Shown here: piece after piece, positions 17,511 to 22,864 of the stretch | Position numbering within the stretch: position 1 is the first letter of the stretch | How the letters are laid out: each line of letters opens with the position of its first letter | Assembly (NCBI RefSeq): GCF_016862275.1 | Contig: NZ_BOMQ01000088.1 | Coordinates: forward strand, 62,001 to 126,000 | DNA: 64,000 bases | From: Actinoplanes nipponensis | Lineage (GTDB): Bacteria; Actinomycetota; Actinomycetes; Mycobacteriales; Micromonosporaceae | Direction of reading: 5' to 3' | Translations under genes and position numbers: made by a program | Notes under the pieces: model-generated | What the model saw: the letters and a program-made list of their open reading frames with translations, nothing else | What the model was told of the DNA's origin: nothing | The model's database searches: none

Positions 17511-17972
17511 CTACAGCCGGAAGGTGCTGGTCACGACCTGCCGCCCGCCGGGGAGTTCGCAGGCCACGCTGAACAGGCCGACCGGCGGCGGGGCGATGCG
17601 GAAGCAGCCGTCCTCGTCGACCGGGACGGTGCTGGTCTGCCCGCCGTCGAGCCGGAGGGTCACCTCGGCCGGGCCGGGCGGCACCAGCAGCCCGAGCAGC
17701 GCGGAGGGTGACACGCCCAGTTCCACGGTGAGACCGGGGGCGGCGAAGCTCAGCGTCCGCAGCTCGGCCTCCTCGGCCCGCAGGCCGGCCAGGGCCGCCG
17801 TCTCGGCGCGGGAGTCGTGGACGAGCTCGGCCAGTTCGGCGTCGACGGTGCGCCAGGTGTAGACCGCGCGGGCCGCCTCCAGCACCGCCGGCGGGGTGGG
17901 GTCGGGGGTGCGCACGGCCTCGTCGAGCGCCCGCAGGAGGTTGTCGTTCTCCTGCCAGTCGTTGCCCATCAT
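17511..17972 (-). CDS. sigma-factor-associated protein of unknown function (153 aa)
   Basis: Protein of 153 aa; ATG 17972 (or the adjacent ATG 17969) follows an AAGGAG site. It begins 29 bp after the sigma-factor stop. The N-terminal half is helical and acidic (NDNLLRALDEAVR, VYTWRTVDAELAELVHDS). The C-terminal ~75 residues are beta-rich and look like a small carboxypeptidase-regulatory or Ig-like domain (LTVELGVSPSALLGLLVPPGPAEVTLRL, VDEDGCFRIAP). There is no membrane segment and no zinc-binding anti-sigma motif. Its place in the operon makes it a candidate anti-sigma or adaptor protein and possible substrate of the neighbouring proteases. That is inference. Confidence 0.7.
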   Translation of the reverse strand: MMGNDWQENDNLLRALDEAVRTPDPTPPAVLEAARAVYTWRTVDAELAELVHDSRAETAALAGLRAEEAELRTLSFAAPGLTVELGVSPSALLGLLVPPGPAEVTLRLDGGQTSTVPVDEDGCFRIAPPPVGLFSVACELPGGRQVVTSTFRL

Positions 17973-18001
17973 GGTCGTCTCCTTCTTCGGCGCCGGCGTG
18001 G

Positions 18002-18688
18002 TCACGGCCTGTCCTGCGGGTCGGCATCGGTCAGCAGGGCCCGCAGGGTGGGGCTGCCGCGCAGCCGGTCCAGGCAGCGGGCCCGGTTCGGGCCGATCGC
18101 GCCGCACGGCATGCCGAGCCGCGCGCTGATGTCGGCGTACGAGGTGGGTGGGTCACTCATCAGCAGGCCGAGCAGCCGCCGGCAGCGGTCCGGCAGCTCC
18201 GCGAGCGCGGCCCGGAGCGCGGCGGCGCGCTCGTCGGCGATCAGGCGCCCGTCGACCGGGCCGGCTCCGTCGTCCGGGGACCGGGCCAGGTGGGCGACGA
18301 GATCGTCGGGTCGCTCCCGGCGTTGCGCGTGGTACAGCCGGGTGCATTCGCGGACCGTGGTGGTCCGCAGCCAGCCCGGCAGGGCCTGCGGCTCGCGCAG
18401 CCGGCCGAGGTTCTCCACCAGCCGCAGCCACACGGTCTGGCTCACGTCGGCGGTGTCCGCCGCGTCCAGCCGCCAGCGCCGGCAGGTCGCGTACACCAGC
18501 GGAGCGTACCGTTCCACCAGGGCGTTCCACGCCCGCGCGTCGCCGGCCGCCGCCGAGGTGAGCAGGGCGGTGAGCCCGCCGTCGCTCGCGGCGAAGTCCT
18601 CGTCGGGTGGTACGCCGCCCGGGATACCGGCCGGGACCGCGTTCGGGTCGCGGCCGGCCGTGCGGCCGGCGGGATCGCCGTCGATCAT
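18002..18688 (-). CDS. ECF-type sigma-70 family RNA polymerase sigma factor
   Basis: Protein of 228 aa from the ATG at 18688 (GAGGAG ribosome site). Region 2 runs about 45-115 (AWNALVERYAPLVYATCRRW, ADVSQTVWLRLVENLG, LPGWLRTTTVRECTRLYHAQRR). Region 4 runs about 170-225 (LPDRCRRLLGLLMSDPPTSYADISARLGMPCGAIGPNRARCLDRLR). The GPNRARCLDRLR recognition helix is characteristic of a subgroup found beside CHAT and S8 protease genes. The ~40-residue N-terminal extension is Pro/Gly/Asp-rich and probably disordered. An upstream GTG at 18754 is possible but lacks support. Lies 84 bp after the leaderless subtilase and before the 153-aa gene. Confidence 0.88.
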   Translation of the reverse strand: MIDGDPAGRTAGRDPNAVPAGIPGGVPPDEDFAASDGGLTALLTSAAAGDARAWNALVERYAPLVYATCRRWRLDAADTADVSQTVWLRLVENLGRLREPQALPGWLRTTTVRECTRLYHAQRRERPDDLVAHLARSPDDGAGPVDGRLIADERAAALRAALAELPDRCRRLLGLLMSDPPTSYADISARLGMPCGAIGPNRARCLDRLRGSPTLRALLTDADPQDRP

Positions 18689-18772
18689 TGCTGACTCCTC
18701 GTCGAGTGGTACGGGCTGGTCCCCGCCAGCGCGGACAATAGCCGCGATAGCCACCTATGCCCCGGATAACGG

Positions 18773-20059
18773 CTAAATGCAGTCTTTCGGCAGGCGGGCC
18801 GCGCTGGCTCCGGCCGCGGCGGCGCGGGTCAGCCGGTGCAGTGCGTCGCGCCCGCCGACCTCACCGCGCCGGACGCGCCCGGCGATCAGGCCGGAGACCC
18901 ACGCCGCGGCGAACGACGTGCCGCTCCACGCCGCCACCCCGCCGTAGTGCCTCTCCCGGCCCGCTTCCGAGCCGGTCACCCGCACCTCGCCGCCGAAGTA
19001 GTTGCTCACCACGTTCACGCCGGGCGCCATCAGCTGCACCCAGTCCGCGTCCGGGCTGAACGCGGCCCGGGTGCCCTTGGCCGTCAGGGCGCCGACCGCC
19101 ACCACCTCGTCGTACGCCGCCGGCCACAGCGGACGGCGGGACCCCTCCGCGGCCATGCCGTGGTTGCCGGCCGCGGCCACCACGACGGTCTGCGGGCCGA
19201 GCAGCCGCAGCGCGGCGGTGAGGGCCAGGGCCGGCTGGTTGTCGCCGGTGAAGAAGCCGGCGGAGATGTTGATGACGTCGATGCCGCGCCCGGCCAGCTC
19301 GGCCAGGTCGACGGCGAGCTGCCACGAGGTGCCCTTCGCGTCGTCGCCCAGCGTGGGGTGGACGGTGACCGCCGCGCCCGGCGCGCTCCGCAGGACGGTG
19401 CCGGTGACGAAGGTGGCGTGCCCGGCGGTGAACGGCAGGGTGACCTCTTTCTCCCGCGGCAGCAGGGCGTCCGGGGCGGCGAGGTAGCCGCCGGTGAGCG
19501 CGCCGCCGTCCCACAGCCGGGTGTCGCAGACGGCGACGGTGGCGCCCTGGCCGTACATGCCGCGATCGCGGGGCAGCCCGCCGGCCAGGCTGCGCGGGCC
19601 GCCCCGGGCGGCGTCGTCGTCCGTTTCCGGCGCGGGCAGCACGTAGGCGTCGTCGGCCAGTGACCGGTCCCCCCAGCCGCCGGCCAGCGCCTCGGCCTCG
19701 CCCTCCGCGACGGTGGGCAGGTCGCTGCCGCCGCCGCTGATCACGTGGGCGCCGCCGACGGTCTCGACCTCGCGGTTCTTGCCGAACTCCGGCACCCAGC
19801 CGTCGAAGGTGTCGCGGAAGTGGGTGCGCAGCTGTTCGAGGAGATCGTCGAGCCGGGAGTGCTTGTCCCGCGCGGTGCCGGCGAGCTCGCGCCCGTGCAG
19901 GCTCACCAGGGCGAGGCCGAGGGCCCGGTTCTCGTCGCGAACGCTCAGGTCCACCTCGAGCTCGTTGAGCCCCGCCCGGACCACGTTCAGGTGCGGCAGC
20001 GCCACCACCAGTTCGTCCACGCGGTGGAAAGCTTCCCGTGTCGCGGCCTTGTCAGTCAT
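18773..20059 (-). CDS. leaderless (cytoplasmic) S8/S53 family serine protease
   Basis: Subtilisin-fold protease of 428 aa starting MTDKAATREAFHRVDEL (ATG 20059, AGGGGGA ribosome site). No signal peptide or membrane anchor is present, unlike typical subtilases. Residues 1-110 form a non-homologous N-terminal domain. The triad is Asp179 (VAVCDTRLWDGG), His214 (FTAGHATFVTG) and Ser382 (WSGTSFAAAWVSG), with oxyanion Asn299 (AAAGNHG). DTR replaces the usual D-S/T-G, and GHATFVTG replaces HGTHVAG. First gene of the minus-strand operon with the sigma factor, and divergent from the TPR-CHAT protease. It likely processes a cytoplasmic protein, perhaps a partner in this locus (inference). Confidence 0.9.
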   Translation of the reverse strand: MTDKAATREAFHRVDELVVALPHLNVVRAGLNELEVDLSVRDENRALGLALVSLHGRELAGTARDKHSRLDDLLEQLRTHFRDTFDGWVPEFGKNREVETVGGAHVISGGGSDLPTVAEGEAEALAGGWGDRSLADDAYVLPAPETDDDAARGGPRSLAGGLPRDRGMYGQGATVAVCDTRLWDGGALTGGYLAAPDALLPREKEVTLPFTAGHATFVTGTVLRSAPGAAVTVHPTLGDDAKGTSWQLAVDLAELAGRGIDVINISAGFFTGDNQPALALTAALRLLGPQTVVVAAAGNHGMAAEGSRRPLWPAAYDEVVAVGALTAKGTRAAFSPDADWVQLMAPGVNVVSNYFGGEVRVTGSEAGRERHYGGVAAWSGTSFAAAWVSGLIAGRVRRGEVGGRDALHRLTRAAAAGASAARLPKDCI

Positions 20060-20118
20060 CGTTCCCCCTGCTCGATGTGGTGTTCCGGGTTCACCGATGC
20101 GGACCGGCGGGTGCCCTG

Positions 20119-20129
20119 TTTGATACAAA
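20119..20129. promoter_or_regulatory. AT-rich inverted repeat in the subtilase/CHAT divergent promoter
   Basis: The 128-bp gap between the two divergent protease genes contains TTTGATACAAA (TTTG/CAAA arms, 3-bp spacer). It is the only AT-rich patch in the region. It could be a shared promoter or an operator for the operon's own sigma factor or a regulator. No convincing -35/-10 pair is assigned. Confidence 0.35.
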
Positions 20130-20187
20130 TGTCCCTGGAGAAAGTCGCCGGCGCGGCGGGGGCACGAGAAATCGCTCGGGAGGCACC

Positions 20188-22824
20188 ATGGTCCGGGACA
20201 CCACGGCCGGCGCCCTCGGGAACGAGGCCCTGCGCCTGGTCGACGCGCAGCCGCGACGCGCCTGGAGCCGCGCCGCCCAGGCCCTCGAGCTGGCCCGGCG
20301 GGCCCACGACCCGGCGTCGGCGGCGGTCGCCGAGCGGGCCCGGGGCCTGGCCGCCCTGCACCTGGCGGACCTCGACACCGCGCTGCGCTGCGAGCGCGGC
20401 GCGGTCCGGCTGGCCCGGCGGGCCGGCAACCCGACCCTCGCCGCCGAGGCCCGGATGAGCCTGGCGTACGTGCTGAGCTGCCGGGGCCAGCCCGGGCGCG
20501 CGCTCGGCGTCATCGACCGGGCCCGGGCCGACCTGACCGGGGTCCAGCGGTCCCGGGCCACCGCCCAGCGCGGCGCCATCCTGCAGCAGCTCGGCCGGCT
20601 CGGGGAGGCGCTGGAGACGTACCGGGAGGTGCTGCCCCGGCTGCGCACGGCGCGCGACTGGGTGTGGACCTGGCGGGTGCTCAACAACCGCGGCGTGCTC
20701 CAGGTGTTCCGCTACCACTTCGCCGAGGCGCTCGCCGACCTGCGTGCGGCCGAGCGGCTCAGCCGGCGCGAGGGGCTGGGCCTGCTCGCCGCCAACGTGC
20801 AGGAGAACCTGGGCTTCGCGCACAGCCGGCGGGGCGCCGTGCCGGAGGCGCTGCGGCACTTCGCCGAGGCCGAACAGCAGTACCGCGCGCTCGGGGTCGG
20901 GGTCAGCTCGCTGCTGCTCGACCGCTCCGAGCTGCTGCTGTCCGTGCGGCTCGCCCGGGAGGCGCGGGAGGCGGCCGAGCAGGTGGTGGCCGAGCTGACC
21001 CGCTCCCGCGGCGGCTTCAAGCTCCCCGAGGGTCATCTGATGGTCGCCACCGCCGCCCTGCTCGCGGGCGACTGCGGCGCCGCCCTGCCCGCGGCCCGGC
21101 AGGCCGCCGCCGCGTTCGCCCGCCAGCACCGCGACGACTGGAGCGCGGTGGCCCGGCTGATCGCGCTGCGCTGCCGGCTCGGGCAGGGCCTGCACGTCGC
21201 CGTGCCGCAGCTCGTGCGGGCCGCCGAGGCCCTGGACGCGGCCGGCTGGCGGCTGCCCGCCCTCGACGCCCGGATCACCGCGGCCCGGCTCGCGCTCGAG
21301 CGCGGCCGCCGCGGCGAGGCCCGCGCGCTGCTGGCCGCGGCCGGCGCCGCCCGCCGGGCCGGGCCGGCCGAGCTGCGCATCCGCGCCTGGCAGGCGACCG
21401 CCCTGGGCCACCTGGTCGACGGGCGGCGGCGGGCGGCCAGCTCCGCCATCTCGGCCGGCCTGCGCATCGCCGAGCAGTACCGGGCCACGCTCGGCGCCGC
21501 CGACCTGCTCGCGCACGTCTCGGGGCACCGCACCGAGCTGGTCGAGCTGGGGCTGCGGATGGCCGTCGAGGCCCGGTCGGCGCGCCGGGTGCTGTGCTGG
21601 GCCGAGCGCGGCCGGGCCAGCCACCTGCTGCTGGCCCGGGCCCAGCCGCCGCGCGACCCGGTGCTCGCCGCGGAGCTGACCCAGGTCCGGGCGGTCGTCG
21701 CGGAGCTGACCGACGCGCGCCGGTCCGGCGCGCCGGTGGCCGCGCTGGAACGGCGGCAGGCGGTGCTGGAGAACCGGGTCCGCGACCGCCTGCGGCGCCG
21801 CCACGGCGACTACACCGGGGCGGCCGCGCCGGCCTCGGTCGCTCAGCTCACCGAGGCGCTGGACGGCGCGGCGGTGCTCGAGTACGTGGAGAGCGCCGGC
21901 CTGCTGTACGTCCTGCTCGTCGCCGGCGGCCGGGTCCGCATGCGCCCGCTGGGCCGGGCCGCGGAGTTCACCGGCCCGCTGGAGCACCTGCCGTTCGCCA
22001 TGCGCCGCGCCGCCGCCCGGGACCCGCACACCGCCGAGGCGGCCGGCCGGCTGCTCACCAGCCTCGGCCGCCGCCTCGACGACCTGCTGATCCGGCCGGT
22101 ACGGGCCGAGCTCGGCGACCGCCCGCTGGTGATCGTCCCGACCGGGGCGCTGCAGTCCCTGCCGTGGGCCCTGCTGCCGTCCTGCGCCGAGCGCCCGGTG
22201 ACCGTCTCGCCCTCGCTGACCCTCTGGCACCAGGCCGCCCGGCGCGCGCCCCGCGGCGGGGCCCCGCTGGCCGTCGCCGGCCCGGATCTGCCCGGCGCGG
22301 TCGCCGAGATCGCCGCGCTGCGCCGCCTGCACCCCGCCGCCCGGGTGCTGACGGGGGCGGCGGCCACCACGGCCGCCGTGCTGGCCGCCCTGCCGCACGC
22401 CGGGATCGCCCACCTGGCCGCGCACGGCACGTTCCGGCGCGACAACCCGCTCTTCTCCTGCCTGCGGCTGGCCGACGGCCCGCTCACCGTCCACGACCTG
22501 CAGACCCTGCCCGGCGTACCGGACCTGGTGATCCTCGCCGCCTGCGACAGCGGCCTGTCCCTGGTGTGCCCGGGCGACGAACTGCTCGGCTTCTCCGCGG
22601 CCCTGCTGACCATGGGCGCCCGCGCGCTGATCGCGGCCCTGCTGCCGGTGCCGGACGTACCCGCCGCGGAGCTGATGACGACGGTGCACCGCGAGCTGGC
22701 GGCCGGGGCGGCGCCGGCCGCGGCGCTCGCCACCGCCCGCCGCGACCTGGTCCGCCACGGCGGGCCGGCGGAGCGCGTGGCCGCCGCCGGCTTCGTCTGC
22801 CTCGGCGCAGGCCTGCGCCCCTGA
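20188..22824 (+). CDS. TPR-CHAT caspase-like protease
   Basis: Protein of 878 aa from ATG 20188 (GGGAGG ribosome site). Residues ~1-480 are tandem TPR-like helical hairpins (for example ALELARRAHDPASAAVAERARGL and ALETYREVLPRLRTARDW). A helical linker leads to a C-terminal CHAT domain of about 280 residues. The catalytic dyad is visible: His746 in AHLAAHGTFRRDNPLFSC and Cys786 in VILAACDSGLS, followed by LLTMGARALIAALLPVPD. CHAT proteins are clan-CD cysteine peptidases with caspase/separase-like folds. TPR-CHAT proteins are used as triggered proteases in defence and stress systems, the best known being the type III-E CRISPR Craspase. Divergent here from a subtilase-sigma operon. Confidence 0.92.
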   Translation: MVRDTTAGALGNEALRLVDAQPRRAWSRAAQALELARRAHDPASAAVAERARGLAALHLADLDTALRCERGAVRLARRAGNPTLAAEARMSLAYVLSCRGQPGRALGVIDRARADLTGVQRSRATAQRGAILQQLGRLGEALETYREVLPRLRTARDWVWTWRVLNNRGVLQVFRYHFAEALADLRAAERLSRREGLGLLAANVQENLGFAHSRRGAVPEALRHFAEAEQQYRALGVGVSSLLLDRSELLLSVRLAREAREAAEQVVAELTRSRGGFKLPEGHLMVATAALLAGDCGAALPAARQAAAAFARQHRDDWSAVARLIALRCRLGQGLHVAVPQLVRAAEALDAAGWRLPALDARITAARLALERGRRGEARALLAAAGAARRAGPAELRIRAWQATALGHLVDGRRRAASSAISAGLRIAEQYRATLGAADLLAHVSGHRTELVELGLRMAVEARSARRVLCWAERGRASHLLLARAQPPRDPVLAAELTQVRAVVAELTDARRSGAPVAALERRQAVLENRVRDRLRRRHGDYTGAAAPASVAQLTEALDGAAVLEYVESAGLLYVLLVAGGRVRMRPLGRAAEFTGPLEHLPFAMRRAAARDPHTAEAAGRLLTSLGRRLDDLLIRPVRAELGDRPLVIVPTGALQSLPWALLPSCAERPVTVSPSLTLWHQAARRAPRGGAPLAVAGPDLPGAVAEIAALRRLHPAARVLTGAAATTAAVLAALPHAGIAHLAAHGTFRRDNPLFSCLRLADGPLTVHDLQTLPGVPDLVILAACDSGLSLVCPGDELLGFSAALLTMGARALIAALLPVPDVPAAELMTTVHRELAAGAAPAAALATARRDLVRHGGPAERVAAAGFVCLGAGLRP

Positions 22825-22828
22825 CCGT

Positions 22829-22864
22829 CCGCACCGCGCCGGAGTCCGCTCCGGCGCGGTGCGG
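22829..22864. terminator. strong bidirectional hairpin after the CHAT gene
   Basis: Perfect 16-bp inverted repeat: arm 22829-22844 (CCGCACCGCGCCGGAG), loop TCCG, arm 22849-22864. It lies between the CHAT stop and the stop of the convergent 650-aa gene, isolating the protease locus from its neighbour. Confidence 0.8.

What the first reader, a model, noticed from the sequence alone, without database searches (positions are those of the whole stretch)
17511..22824. TPR-CHAT protease, leaderless subtilase, ECF sigma factor and small partner in one divergent locus
Sequence shows a caspase-like TPR-CHAT protein (His746, Cys786) divergent from an operon of a signal-less subtilase (Asp179/His214/Ser382), an ECF-type sigma factor and a 153-aa protein, closed off by a 16-bp-stem terminator. 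In type III-E CRISPR a TPR-CHAT protease cleaves Csx30, which restrains an ECF-like sigma factor. Here there is no CRISPR, but the same logic (protease trigger, small regulator, sigma factor) could form a CRISPR-independent proteolytic stress or defence switch. The 153-aa protein would be the anti-sigma or substrate and the subtilase a second protease in the cascade. The proposed wiring is inference.
Basis: partly seen in the sequence, partly recalled or inferred. Interest (0 to 1): 0.78.

Follow-up and report, generated by a model that had tools for sequence, protein, structure and literature searches.

The report
Protease-gated sigma factor switch module
Four neighbouring genes that travel together across many actinobacteria (a caspase-like protease, a subtilisin-like protease, a sigma factor and a small two-part protein) look like a switch in which a protease cuts the small protein to free the sigma factor, similar in logic to a known CRISPR-linked pathway but without any CRISPR.

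Summary
The four genes are real and intact, and they form a conserved module. Of 80 loci anchored on the small protein, 71 hold all four genes within 6 kb, in 11 gene orders; no other flanking gene family is comparably shared. [quoted passage not shown] My evidence points to the small protein as the missing anti-sigma and protease substrate: next to SIG in 74 of 80 loci, one natural SIG-small fusion, an anti-sigma-like N-domain in divergent homologues, and a predicted disordered hinge holding an Arg in 109 of 109 sequences. CHAT is closest in structure to separase and Csx29, and in sequence to the anti-sigma DdvA. A conserved ECF-type promoter precedes the window operon, though most distant relatives lack it. 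AlphaFold predicted no docking of the hinge in CHAT; binding and cleavage are untested, and a defence role is unsupported. Kribbella modules add a covarying structured RNA behind the same promoter.

The parts
20188..22824 (+). TPR-CHAT caspase-like protease (CHAT), 878 aa, His746/Cys786
   Evidence: structure class
18773..20059 (-). Subtilase (S8), 428 aa, no leader, Asp179/His214/Ser382
18002..18688 (-). ECF-type sigma factor (SIG), 228 aa
   Evidence: TIGR02937 66.8 bits, cut-off 42.9
17511..17972 (-). Small protein (SMALL), 153 aa: N-terminal helices, hinge, beta-sandwich; proposed anti-sigma and protease substrate
   Evidence: fold from the Kribbella homologue
17778..17780 (-). Codon of hinge Arg65 of SMALL, the proposed cleavage position (AGLR|AEE)
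   Evidence: a second hinge Arg (Arg55) exists in the window protein
20100..20127 (-). ECF-type promoter TGTATCA-N17-TCCG, first base 68 nt before the S8 start, driving S8-SIG-SMALL
22829..22864 (+). 16-bp perfect stem, 4-nt loop, just 3' of CHAT, no T-run

Best explanation
The locus is a stand-alone, CRISPR-free proteolytic switch on a sigma factor. SMALL is a cytosolic anti-sigma of SIG: its N-terminal helices hold SIG and its C-terminal beta-sandwich is joined by a flexible hinge. When the TPR domain of CHAT meets its (unknown) trigger, CHAT cuts SMALL after the conserved hinge Arg (Arg65 in the window). SIG is freed and transcribes its own operon, S8-SIG-SMALL, from the TGTATCA-N17-TCCG promoter. 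The response therefore amplifies itself and raises the subtilase, which acts as the output protease. Shown by computation: conservation of the module, intact active sites, the hinge Arg and its predicted disorder, the promoter, and the structural class of CHAT. Inferred: SIG-SMALL binding, cleavage and its position, the trigger, and the role of S8.
For: Linkage: in 80 loci anchored on SMALL (37 organism labels) SIG, S8 and CHAT lie within 6 kb in 78, 73 and 73, all four in 71 (61 of 67 loci with at least 6 kb on both sides), in 11 gene orders; SIG is immediately upstream on the same strand in 74 of 80. Among 20 further regions that I picked mostly for weak SMALL hits, 17 hold all four. Natural SIG-SMALL fusion of 307 aa inside a complete module (L180). 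Anti-sigma signature: the N-domain of 9 divergent SMALLs aligns with zf-HC2 anti-sigma domains of own-genus genes (hhalign probability 62%, P 7.6e-5, 59 columns); 15 control slices of CHAT and SIG reach at most 0.8% and P 0.068; weak zf-HC2 or RskA_N Pfam hits in 3 of the 9. Hinge: Arg in 109 of 109 distinct SMALLs, next residue S/A/G/T in 103, 5-9 residues before a near-invariant Arg in 107; also in 22 of 22 divergent copies, by script plus reading; predicted pLDDT below 50 around it (residues 259-269, Arg264). CHAT: separase Z 28.5, Craspase Z 27.0, Arg-gingipain RgpB Z 18.8; H746/C786 in 57 of 57. Promoter: 34 hits against 3 for the reversed pattern in 18 genomes, 15 of them the module's own promoter. 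Precedent: Csx29 cuts Csx30, an inhibitor of CASP-sigma (PMC10028731, passages).
Against: No binding or cleavage was measured. In the read-through SMALL-CHAT model the hinge stays disordered (44-58, Arg56), so AlphaFold shows no docking; the one-chain design and shallow alignment limit that result. No interface score or coordinates were available for the SIG-SMALL model. The window-type N-domain itself shows no detectable anti-sigma similarity (probability 1.6%). Arg is common in these proteins (about 9% of hinge letters; 38 of 109 hinges have more than one, the window's included), so one Arg per hinge is partly expected. The promoter was found in 24 of 78 loci only (54 without), and in the own genome the reversed control pattern also matched once. 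Jiangella has SIG-SMALL without CHAT or S8 within 9 kb (L115, L127, L128; L122 cut short), and orphan SMALLs exist (L102, L177). In L169 and L170 extra S8-SMALL-CHAT sets share a single SIG, which suggests that SMALL does more than hold SIG.
Confidence: 0.5

Rival explanations
1. S8, not CHAT, is the protease that cuts SMALL; CHAT is an upstream sensor or activates S8.
For: S8 is co-operonic with SIG and SMALL in the commonest order (38 of 80 loci), has an intact triad and is cytosolic in the window.
Against: Subtilases usually prefer hydrophobic P1 residues (recalled), whereas the conserved hinge residue is Arg; 11 of 73 S8 homologues carry a Tat-like RR leader and would leave the cytosol.
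Confidence: 0.15
2. CHAT works without cutting SMALL, as part of an anti-sigma complex like DdvA, releasing SIG by a conformational change; the hinge Arg is a binding or structural residue.
For: The best PDB sequence match of the CHAT domain is DdvA (8rot, E 1e-11, better than Craspase TPR-CHAT at 2e-8), titled a transmembrane anti-sigma factor; a paper calls DdvA the cognate anti-sigma of the ECF DdvS (PMC4374960, passages).
Against: Both catalytic residues are invariant in 57 of 57 CHATs; a pure scaffold would not need that. DdvA also keeps a His and a Cys at these places, so it may itself be a protease.
Confidence: 0.2
3. SMALL is not an anti-sigma but a substrate, effector or adaptor of the proteases; SIG is regulated otherwise, for instance by transcription only, as the review assumed.
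For: S8-SMALL-CHAT sets without their own SIG in L169 and L170; the review proposes control without an anti-sigma.
Against: SIG is the immediate upstream neighbour in 74 of 80 loci, the natural fusion and the anti-sigma-like domain in divergent copies; Jiangella keeps SIG-SMALL alone.
Confidence: 0.15

Closest known systems
ECF54 sigma factors and their neighbourhood (Huang 2015; Casas-Pastor 2021, both seen only as quoted in PMC8999054)
   Same: ECF sigma factor with carboxypeptidase-domain, subtilase and CHAT proteins in its context, in actinobacteria
   Different: Nothing in kind. The review states no anti-sigma; here SMALL is proposed as one, with a hinge site, a promoter and, in Kribbella, an RNA. 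Assignment of SIG to ECF54 by model or tree was not tested.
Type III-E CRISPR CASP: Cas7-11, Csx29, Csx30, CASP-sigma (PMC10028731, passages)
   Same: TPR-CHAT protease of the same fold, an ECF-type sigma factor, and a two-domain inhibitor or candidate inhibitor with a flexible hinge or linker
   Different: No Cas7-11 or RAMP protein, no Csx31 seen, a subtilase added, SMALL is 153 aa while Csx30 runs beyond residue 560, and no sequence match to Csx30 chains was found.
DdvA, CHAT-containing transmembrane anti-sigma factor of Myxococcus
   Same: Nearest solved relative of the CHAT domain by sequence, TPR plus CHAT, controls an ECF sigma factor
   Different: One membrane protein; here the CHAT protein and the proposed anti-sigma are separate and look cytosolic.
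Separase and Arg-gingipain
   Same: Best structural matches of the catalytic domain (separase Z 28.5, rmsd 3.0 over 307; RgpB Z 18.8); both cut after Arg (gingipain: PDB title; separase: recalled)
   Different: Eukaryotic cohesin cleavage; secreted bacterial protease.
HetF-PatU3 of Anabaena
   Same: HetF is reported to cleave a negative regulator, PatU3 (PMC12288457, passages); that HetF gives the CHAT family its name is said
   Different: Heterocyst development, no sigma factor; the cleavage site was not seen.

Membership tests
ECF54 neighbourhood | ECF sigma gene next to carboxypeptidase-type, subtilase and CHAT genes | tested here: met
   the 'carboxypeptidase' protein is taken to be SMALL (sub-threshold PF13620), which is inference
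ECF54 neighbourhood | SIG falls in group ECF54 by its published model or tree | not testable with these tools
   neither defining paper is held
Type III-E CRISPR CASP | TPR-CHAT protease with Csx29 fold | tested here: met
   fold met; but the NCBIfam Csx29 model gives 22.3 bits against a cut-off of 300, so the protein is not Csx29
Type III-E CRISPR CASP | Cas7-11 (gRAMP) effector and CRISPR array | tested here: not met
   0 RAMP matches in the own genome; no array in window 5000-36000
Type III-E CRISPR CASP | SMALL homologous to Csx30 | tested here: inconclusive
   profile A1 against the PDB gives 3 hits, none Csx30; Csx30 is not among the 50 structural rows listed
Class I (zf-HC2 type) anti-sigma factor | N-terminal anti-sigma domain in SMALL | tested here: inconclusive
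   window type: not detectable; divergent homologues: probability 62%, P 7.6e-5 against 15 controls
CHAT protease (PF12770) | CHAT domain with catalytic His and Cys | tested here: met
CHAT protease (PF12770) | proteolysis of a partner in the locus | not testable with these tools
   needs the bench; AlphaFold docking negative
Anti-phage defence system | match to a known system or defence-island context | tested here: inconclusive
   PADLOC: BovA 14.8 bits, generic subtilase E 1.3e-11; no shared flanking gene; plasmids 0; phage and viral collections not searched

The most novel reading that the evidence does not exclude
The module is a phylum-wide, CRISPR-independent caspase-like relay: an initiator TPR-CHAT protease cuts a dedicated anti-sigma after a conserved Arg, the freed ECF sigma factor amplifies its own operon, and the induced cytosolic subtilase executes a proteolytic programme. 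Craspase of type III-E CRISPR would then be a CRISPR-captured version of a widespread regulatory circuit, and in Kribbella the same sigma factor also drives a structured small RNA.
Probability: 0.3. Interest if true: 0.85.

Novelty: new variant of a known kind. Interest (0 to 1): 0.62.

Why it matters
If right, protease-triggered release of a sigma factor, known from one CRISPR subtype, is a general actinobacterial signalling design, and Craspase borrowed it. The published ECF54 group would gain its missing anti-sigma, a concrete cleavage site and a promoter, so that a ten-year-old unexplained neighbourhood becomes testable with four purified proteins and one reporter. It also adds a case, beside DdvA, of CHAT proteins controlling ECF sigma factors.

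Tried and rejected
Defence system: no support beyond generic PADLOC matches; SMALL not found in the plasmid collection. Phages and viral contigs were not searched.

SMALL as a Csx30 homologue: profile searches of the PDB with A1 and A5 gave only beta-sandwich proteins, and the structural rows show a common Ig-like sandwich (Z about 8), so no claim. Csx30 is not listed there, which proves nothing.

CHAT-SMALL docking: three alignments were unusable or poor (A6, A9, A10) before A11; the model shows no ordered hinge. An acidic S1 pocket in CHAT could not be settled: position 823 is Asp in 38 of 57, position 787 Asp/Glu in 52 of 57; no claim is made.

Regulon: the second motif sites of three Asanoa genomes have no gene in the right direction; most other extra sites were not examined or looked like chance. 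The motif was found by eye from word counts, so the reversed-pattern control is the only guard. In the own genome each pattern matched once and its reversed control also once. Micromonospora and Saccharothrix loci seem to have another, unidentified promoter.

A fifth gene: none; the next most shared flank cluster has 6 labels against 34 and 36.

L124 'fusion' of SIG and SMALL was dropped as frameshift-suspect, because its region 4 reads out of frame. L178 is a false hit. L055 and L060 were left out of the 13-row RNA alignment, then matched the model at E 7e-5 and 6e-6.

Papers: ten searches found no experimental study of this module; the two papers that define ECF54 are not held, so print is only partly covered.
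Full report
What is there. The window holds CHAT (20188-22824, +) divergent from S8 (18773-20059), SIG (18002-18688) and SMALL (17511-17972), all on the minus strand. The gaps S8-SIG and SIG-SMALL are 84 and 29 nt. The nearest CHAT among 56 aligned relatives is that of Winogradskya consettensis (80% identity; L120), so the host is probably an Actinoplanes-like actinomycete (inference).

Conservation. SMALL was found in 26 of 40 relatives and, with a profile, in 52 of 396 genomes of the phylum; that is a lower bound because only 9 candidates per genome were scored, and it includes at least one false hit. A scan of named genomes returned 80 loci (the best 80 of 124 relatives; pattern WRT[VI]DAEL) with 37 organism labels. 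SIG, S8 and CHAT lie within 6 kb in 78, 73 and 73 of 80; all four in 71, which carry 32 labels. Many loci are close relatives (14 Kribbella, 11 Micromonospora, 8 Saccharothrix), so the counts are not independent; but there are 11 different gene orders, which means that the set has been rearranged and kept. Of 20 more regions, chosen by me mostly for weak or unusual SMALL hits, 17 have all four; L164 is a contig end, L177 an orphan SMALL, L178 a false hit. Clustering of all flank genes gave two clusters made of the module genes (36 and 34 labels); the next spans 6 labels. So the unit is exactly these four genes.

SMALL. The family has an acidic start, two helices with the motif WRTVDAEL..LxxDS, a variable hinge and a beta-sandwich. 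In 109 distinct sequences the hinge (11-26 residues) always holds Arg; in 107 the Arg chosen lies 5-9 residues before a near-invariant Arg that opens the first strand, and the next residue is Ser, Ala, Gly or Thr in 103. No Lys occurs in any hinge. Caution: 38 of 109 have two or three Args, the window among them (Arg55 and Arg65), and Arg makes up about 9% of hinge letters, so the bare presence of one Arg is not remarkable by itself; its place and its neighbour are. In 22 divergent copies the same Arg-small pair is present (21 of 22 by script, of which L179 was matched at a wrong place; L179 and L175 were then read by eye, L175 as Arg-Thr; one of the 22, L180, is the same protein as L006 of the first set). 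An AlphaFold model of a Kribbella SIG-SMALL read-through protein puts this Arg (264) in the middle of the least confident stretch, 259-269.

SMALL as anti-sigma. It is SIG's immediate downstream neighbour in 74 of 80 loci. In G032 the two are one 307-aa protein within a complete module (L006/L180). In family f32 SMALL has a longer N-domain that aligns with zf-HC2 anti-sigma domains from the own genus (probability 62%, P 7.6e-5, 59 columns; 15 controls at most 0.8%, P at least 0.068), with weak zf-HC2 or RskA_N Pfam hits in 3 of 9. The window-type N-domain shows no such match (1.6%), so the transfer to the window is by orthology: same place, same hinge, same beta-domain.

CHAT. The model of the L129 homologue matches Csx29 from the Csx30-bound Craspase first in Foldseek (8eey_B, E 2.7e-14, query TM 0.28) and separase first in VIA-align (Z 28.5, rmsd 3.0, 307 aligned), then Craspase (Z 27.0), with DdvA (Z 19.6) and Arg-gingipain (Z 18.8) further down. 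By sequence the CHAT domain is nearest to DdvA (E 1e-11), ahead of Craspase TPR-CHAT (E 2.4e-8). DdvA is an anti-sigma of an ECF sigma factor (PDB title; PMC4374960 passages). Two separate precedents thus tie CHAT proteins to ECF sigma factors. In the same model, in which SMALL and CHAT form one chain, the SMALL hinge is not ordered, so there is no computational support for docking.

Promoter. TGTATCA-N17-TCCG lies on the minus strand at 20127-20100, its first base 68 nt before the S8 start. The same element, GTATCA-N16-18-TC[C/T]G, stands before the SIG-bearing operon in 24 of 78 loci, against 39 other occurrences in 2.62 million strand-bases and none for the reversed pattern; with a looser start rule 28 of 63 occurrences lie up to 600 nt before a SIG or S8 start. 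In 18 genomes a stricter form gave 34 hits against 3 for the reversed pattern, 15 of the 34 being the module promoters themselves. In the own genome it occurs once, at the module, but the reversed control also occurs once. So in part of the family SIG very probably drives its own operon, and in the window's genome nothing else matches the strict pattern. Fifty-four of 78 loci lack it, and Micromonospora and Saccharothrix must use something else.

Mechanism. I propose: trigger, CHAT active, cut of SMALL after the hinge Arg, SIG free, S8-SIG-SMALL operon up, more subtilase. The first steps rest on the evidence above and on the Csx30 precedent; the executioner role of S8 is inference. Against a purely cytosolic cascade, 11 of 73 S8 homologues, in Micromonospora and Plantactinospora, show an RR-plus-hydrophobic leader.

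Prior art. [quoted passage not shown] That is this neighbourhood. What I did not find in print is SMALL as anti-sigma, the hinge Arg, the promoter, or the parallel with Csx30 and DdvA; the ten searches are listed under Tried and rejected, and the two defining papers were not available.

Kribbella RNA. All 15 Kribbella-type loci (14 Kribbella and one named Streptomyces sp. SID13031) have a second GTATCA-N16-18-TCCG site just beyond the 3' end of S8. It is followed by no evident gene but by a conserved stretch that folds with 30 pairs in 13 sequences, 11 of them with changes on both sides; 94.6% of cells pair, against 31-49% when slid, and 0 of 500 shuffles reach four of five measures (178 of 500 for the fifth). 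No Rfam family matches in three of these loci. The model finds it once in each of four Kribbella genomes and not in four others, the window's included, but only 150 candidates per genome were scored. A sigma-driven structured RNA is the simplest reading.

Noticed in passing
L053:356-491, L058:4216-4346, L070:4228-4358 and the corresponding place in the 15 Kribbella-type loci: A second SIG-type promoter followed by a conserved, covarying structured RNA with GGGGGGAG loops next to the 3' end of S8; no Rfam match in 3 loci searched.
   Followed up: yes
L273:953 and L274:977 (Microbispora): A SIG-type promoter right after SMALL, in front of a gene cluster (a possible M15-like peptidase and a hemopexin-like repeat protein, judged by eye from the translations), a candidate further target.
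   Followed up: partly
PDB 8rot/8rw5 against the CHAT domain: The Myxococcus anti-sigma factor DdvA carries a CHAT domain that keeps the His and Cys.
   Followed up: partly
L077, L078, L086, L090, L092, L099, L100, L104, L114, L125, L130: S8 homologues of Micromonospora and Plantactinospora with Tat-like RR leaders (11 of 73).
   Followed up: no
L169, L170: Tandem S8-SMALL-CHAT sets sharing a single SIG.
   Followed up: no
L115, L122, L127, L128 (Jiangella); L102, L177: SIG-SMALL pairs without CHAT or S8 in the sequence held, and orphan SMALLs.
   Followed up: partly
L270:7876, L271:2324, L272:7996 (Asanoa): A second promoter-like site kept in three species with no gene in the right direction.
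   Followed up: partly
window 20115-20130: The -35 region TTTGTATCAAA is nearly palindromic and lies between the divergent S8 and CHAT genes, so CHAT might share the control.
   Followed up: no
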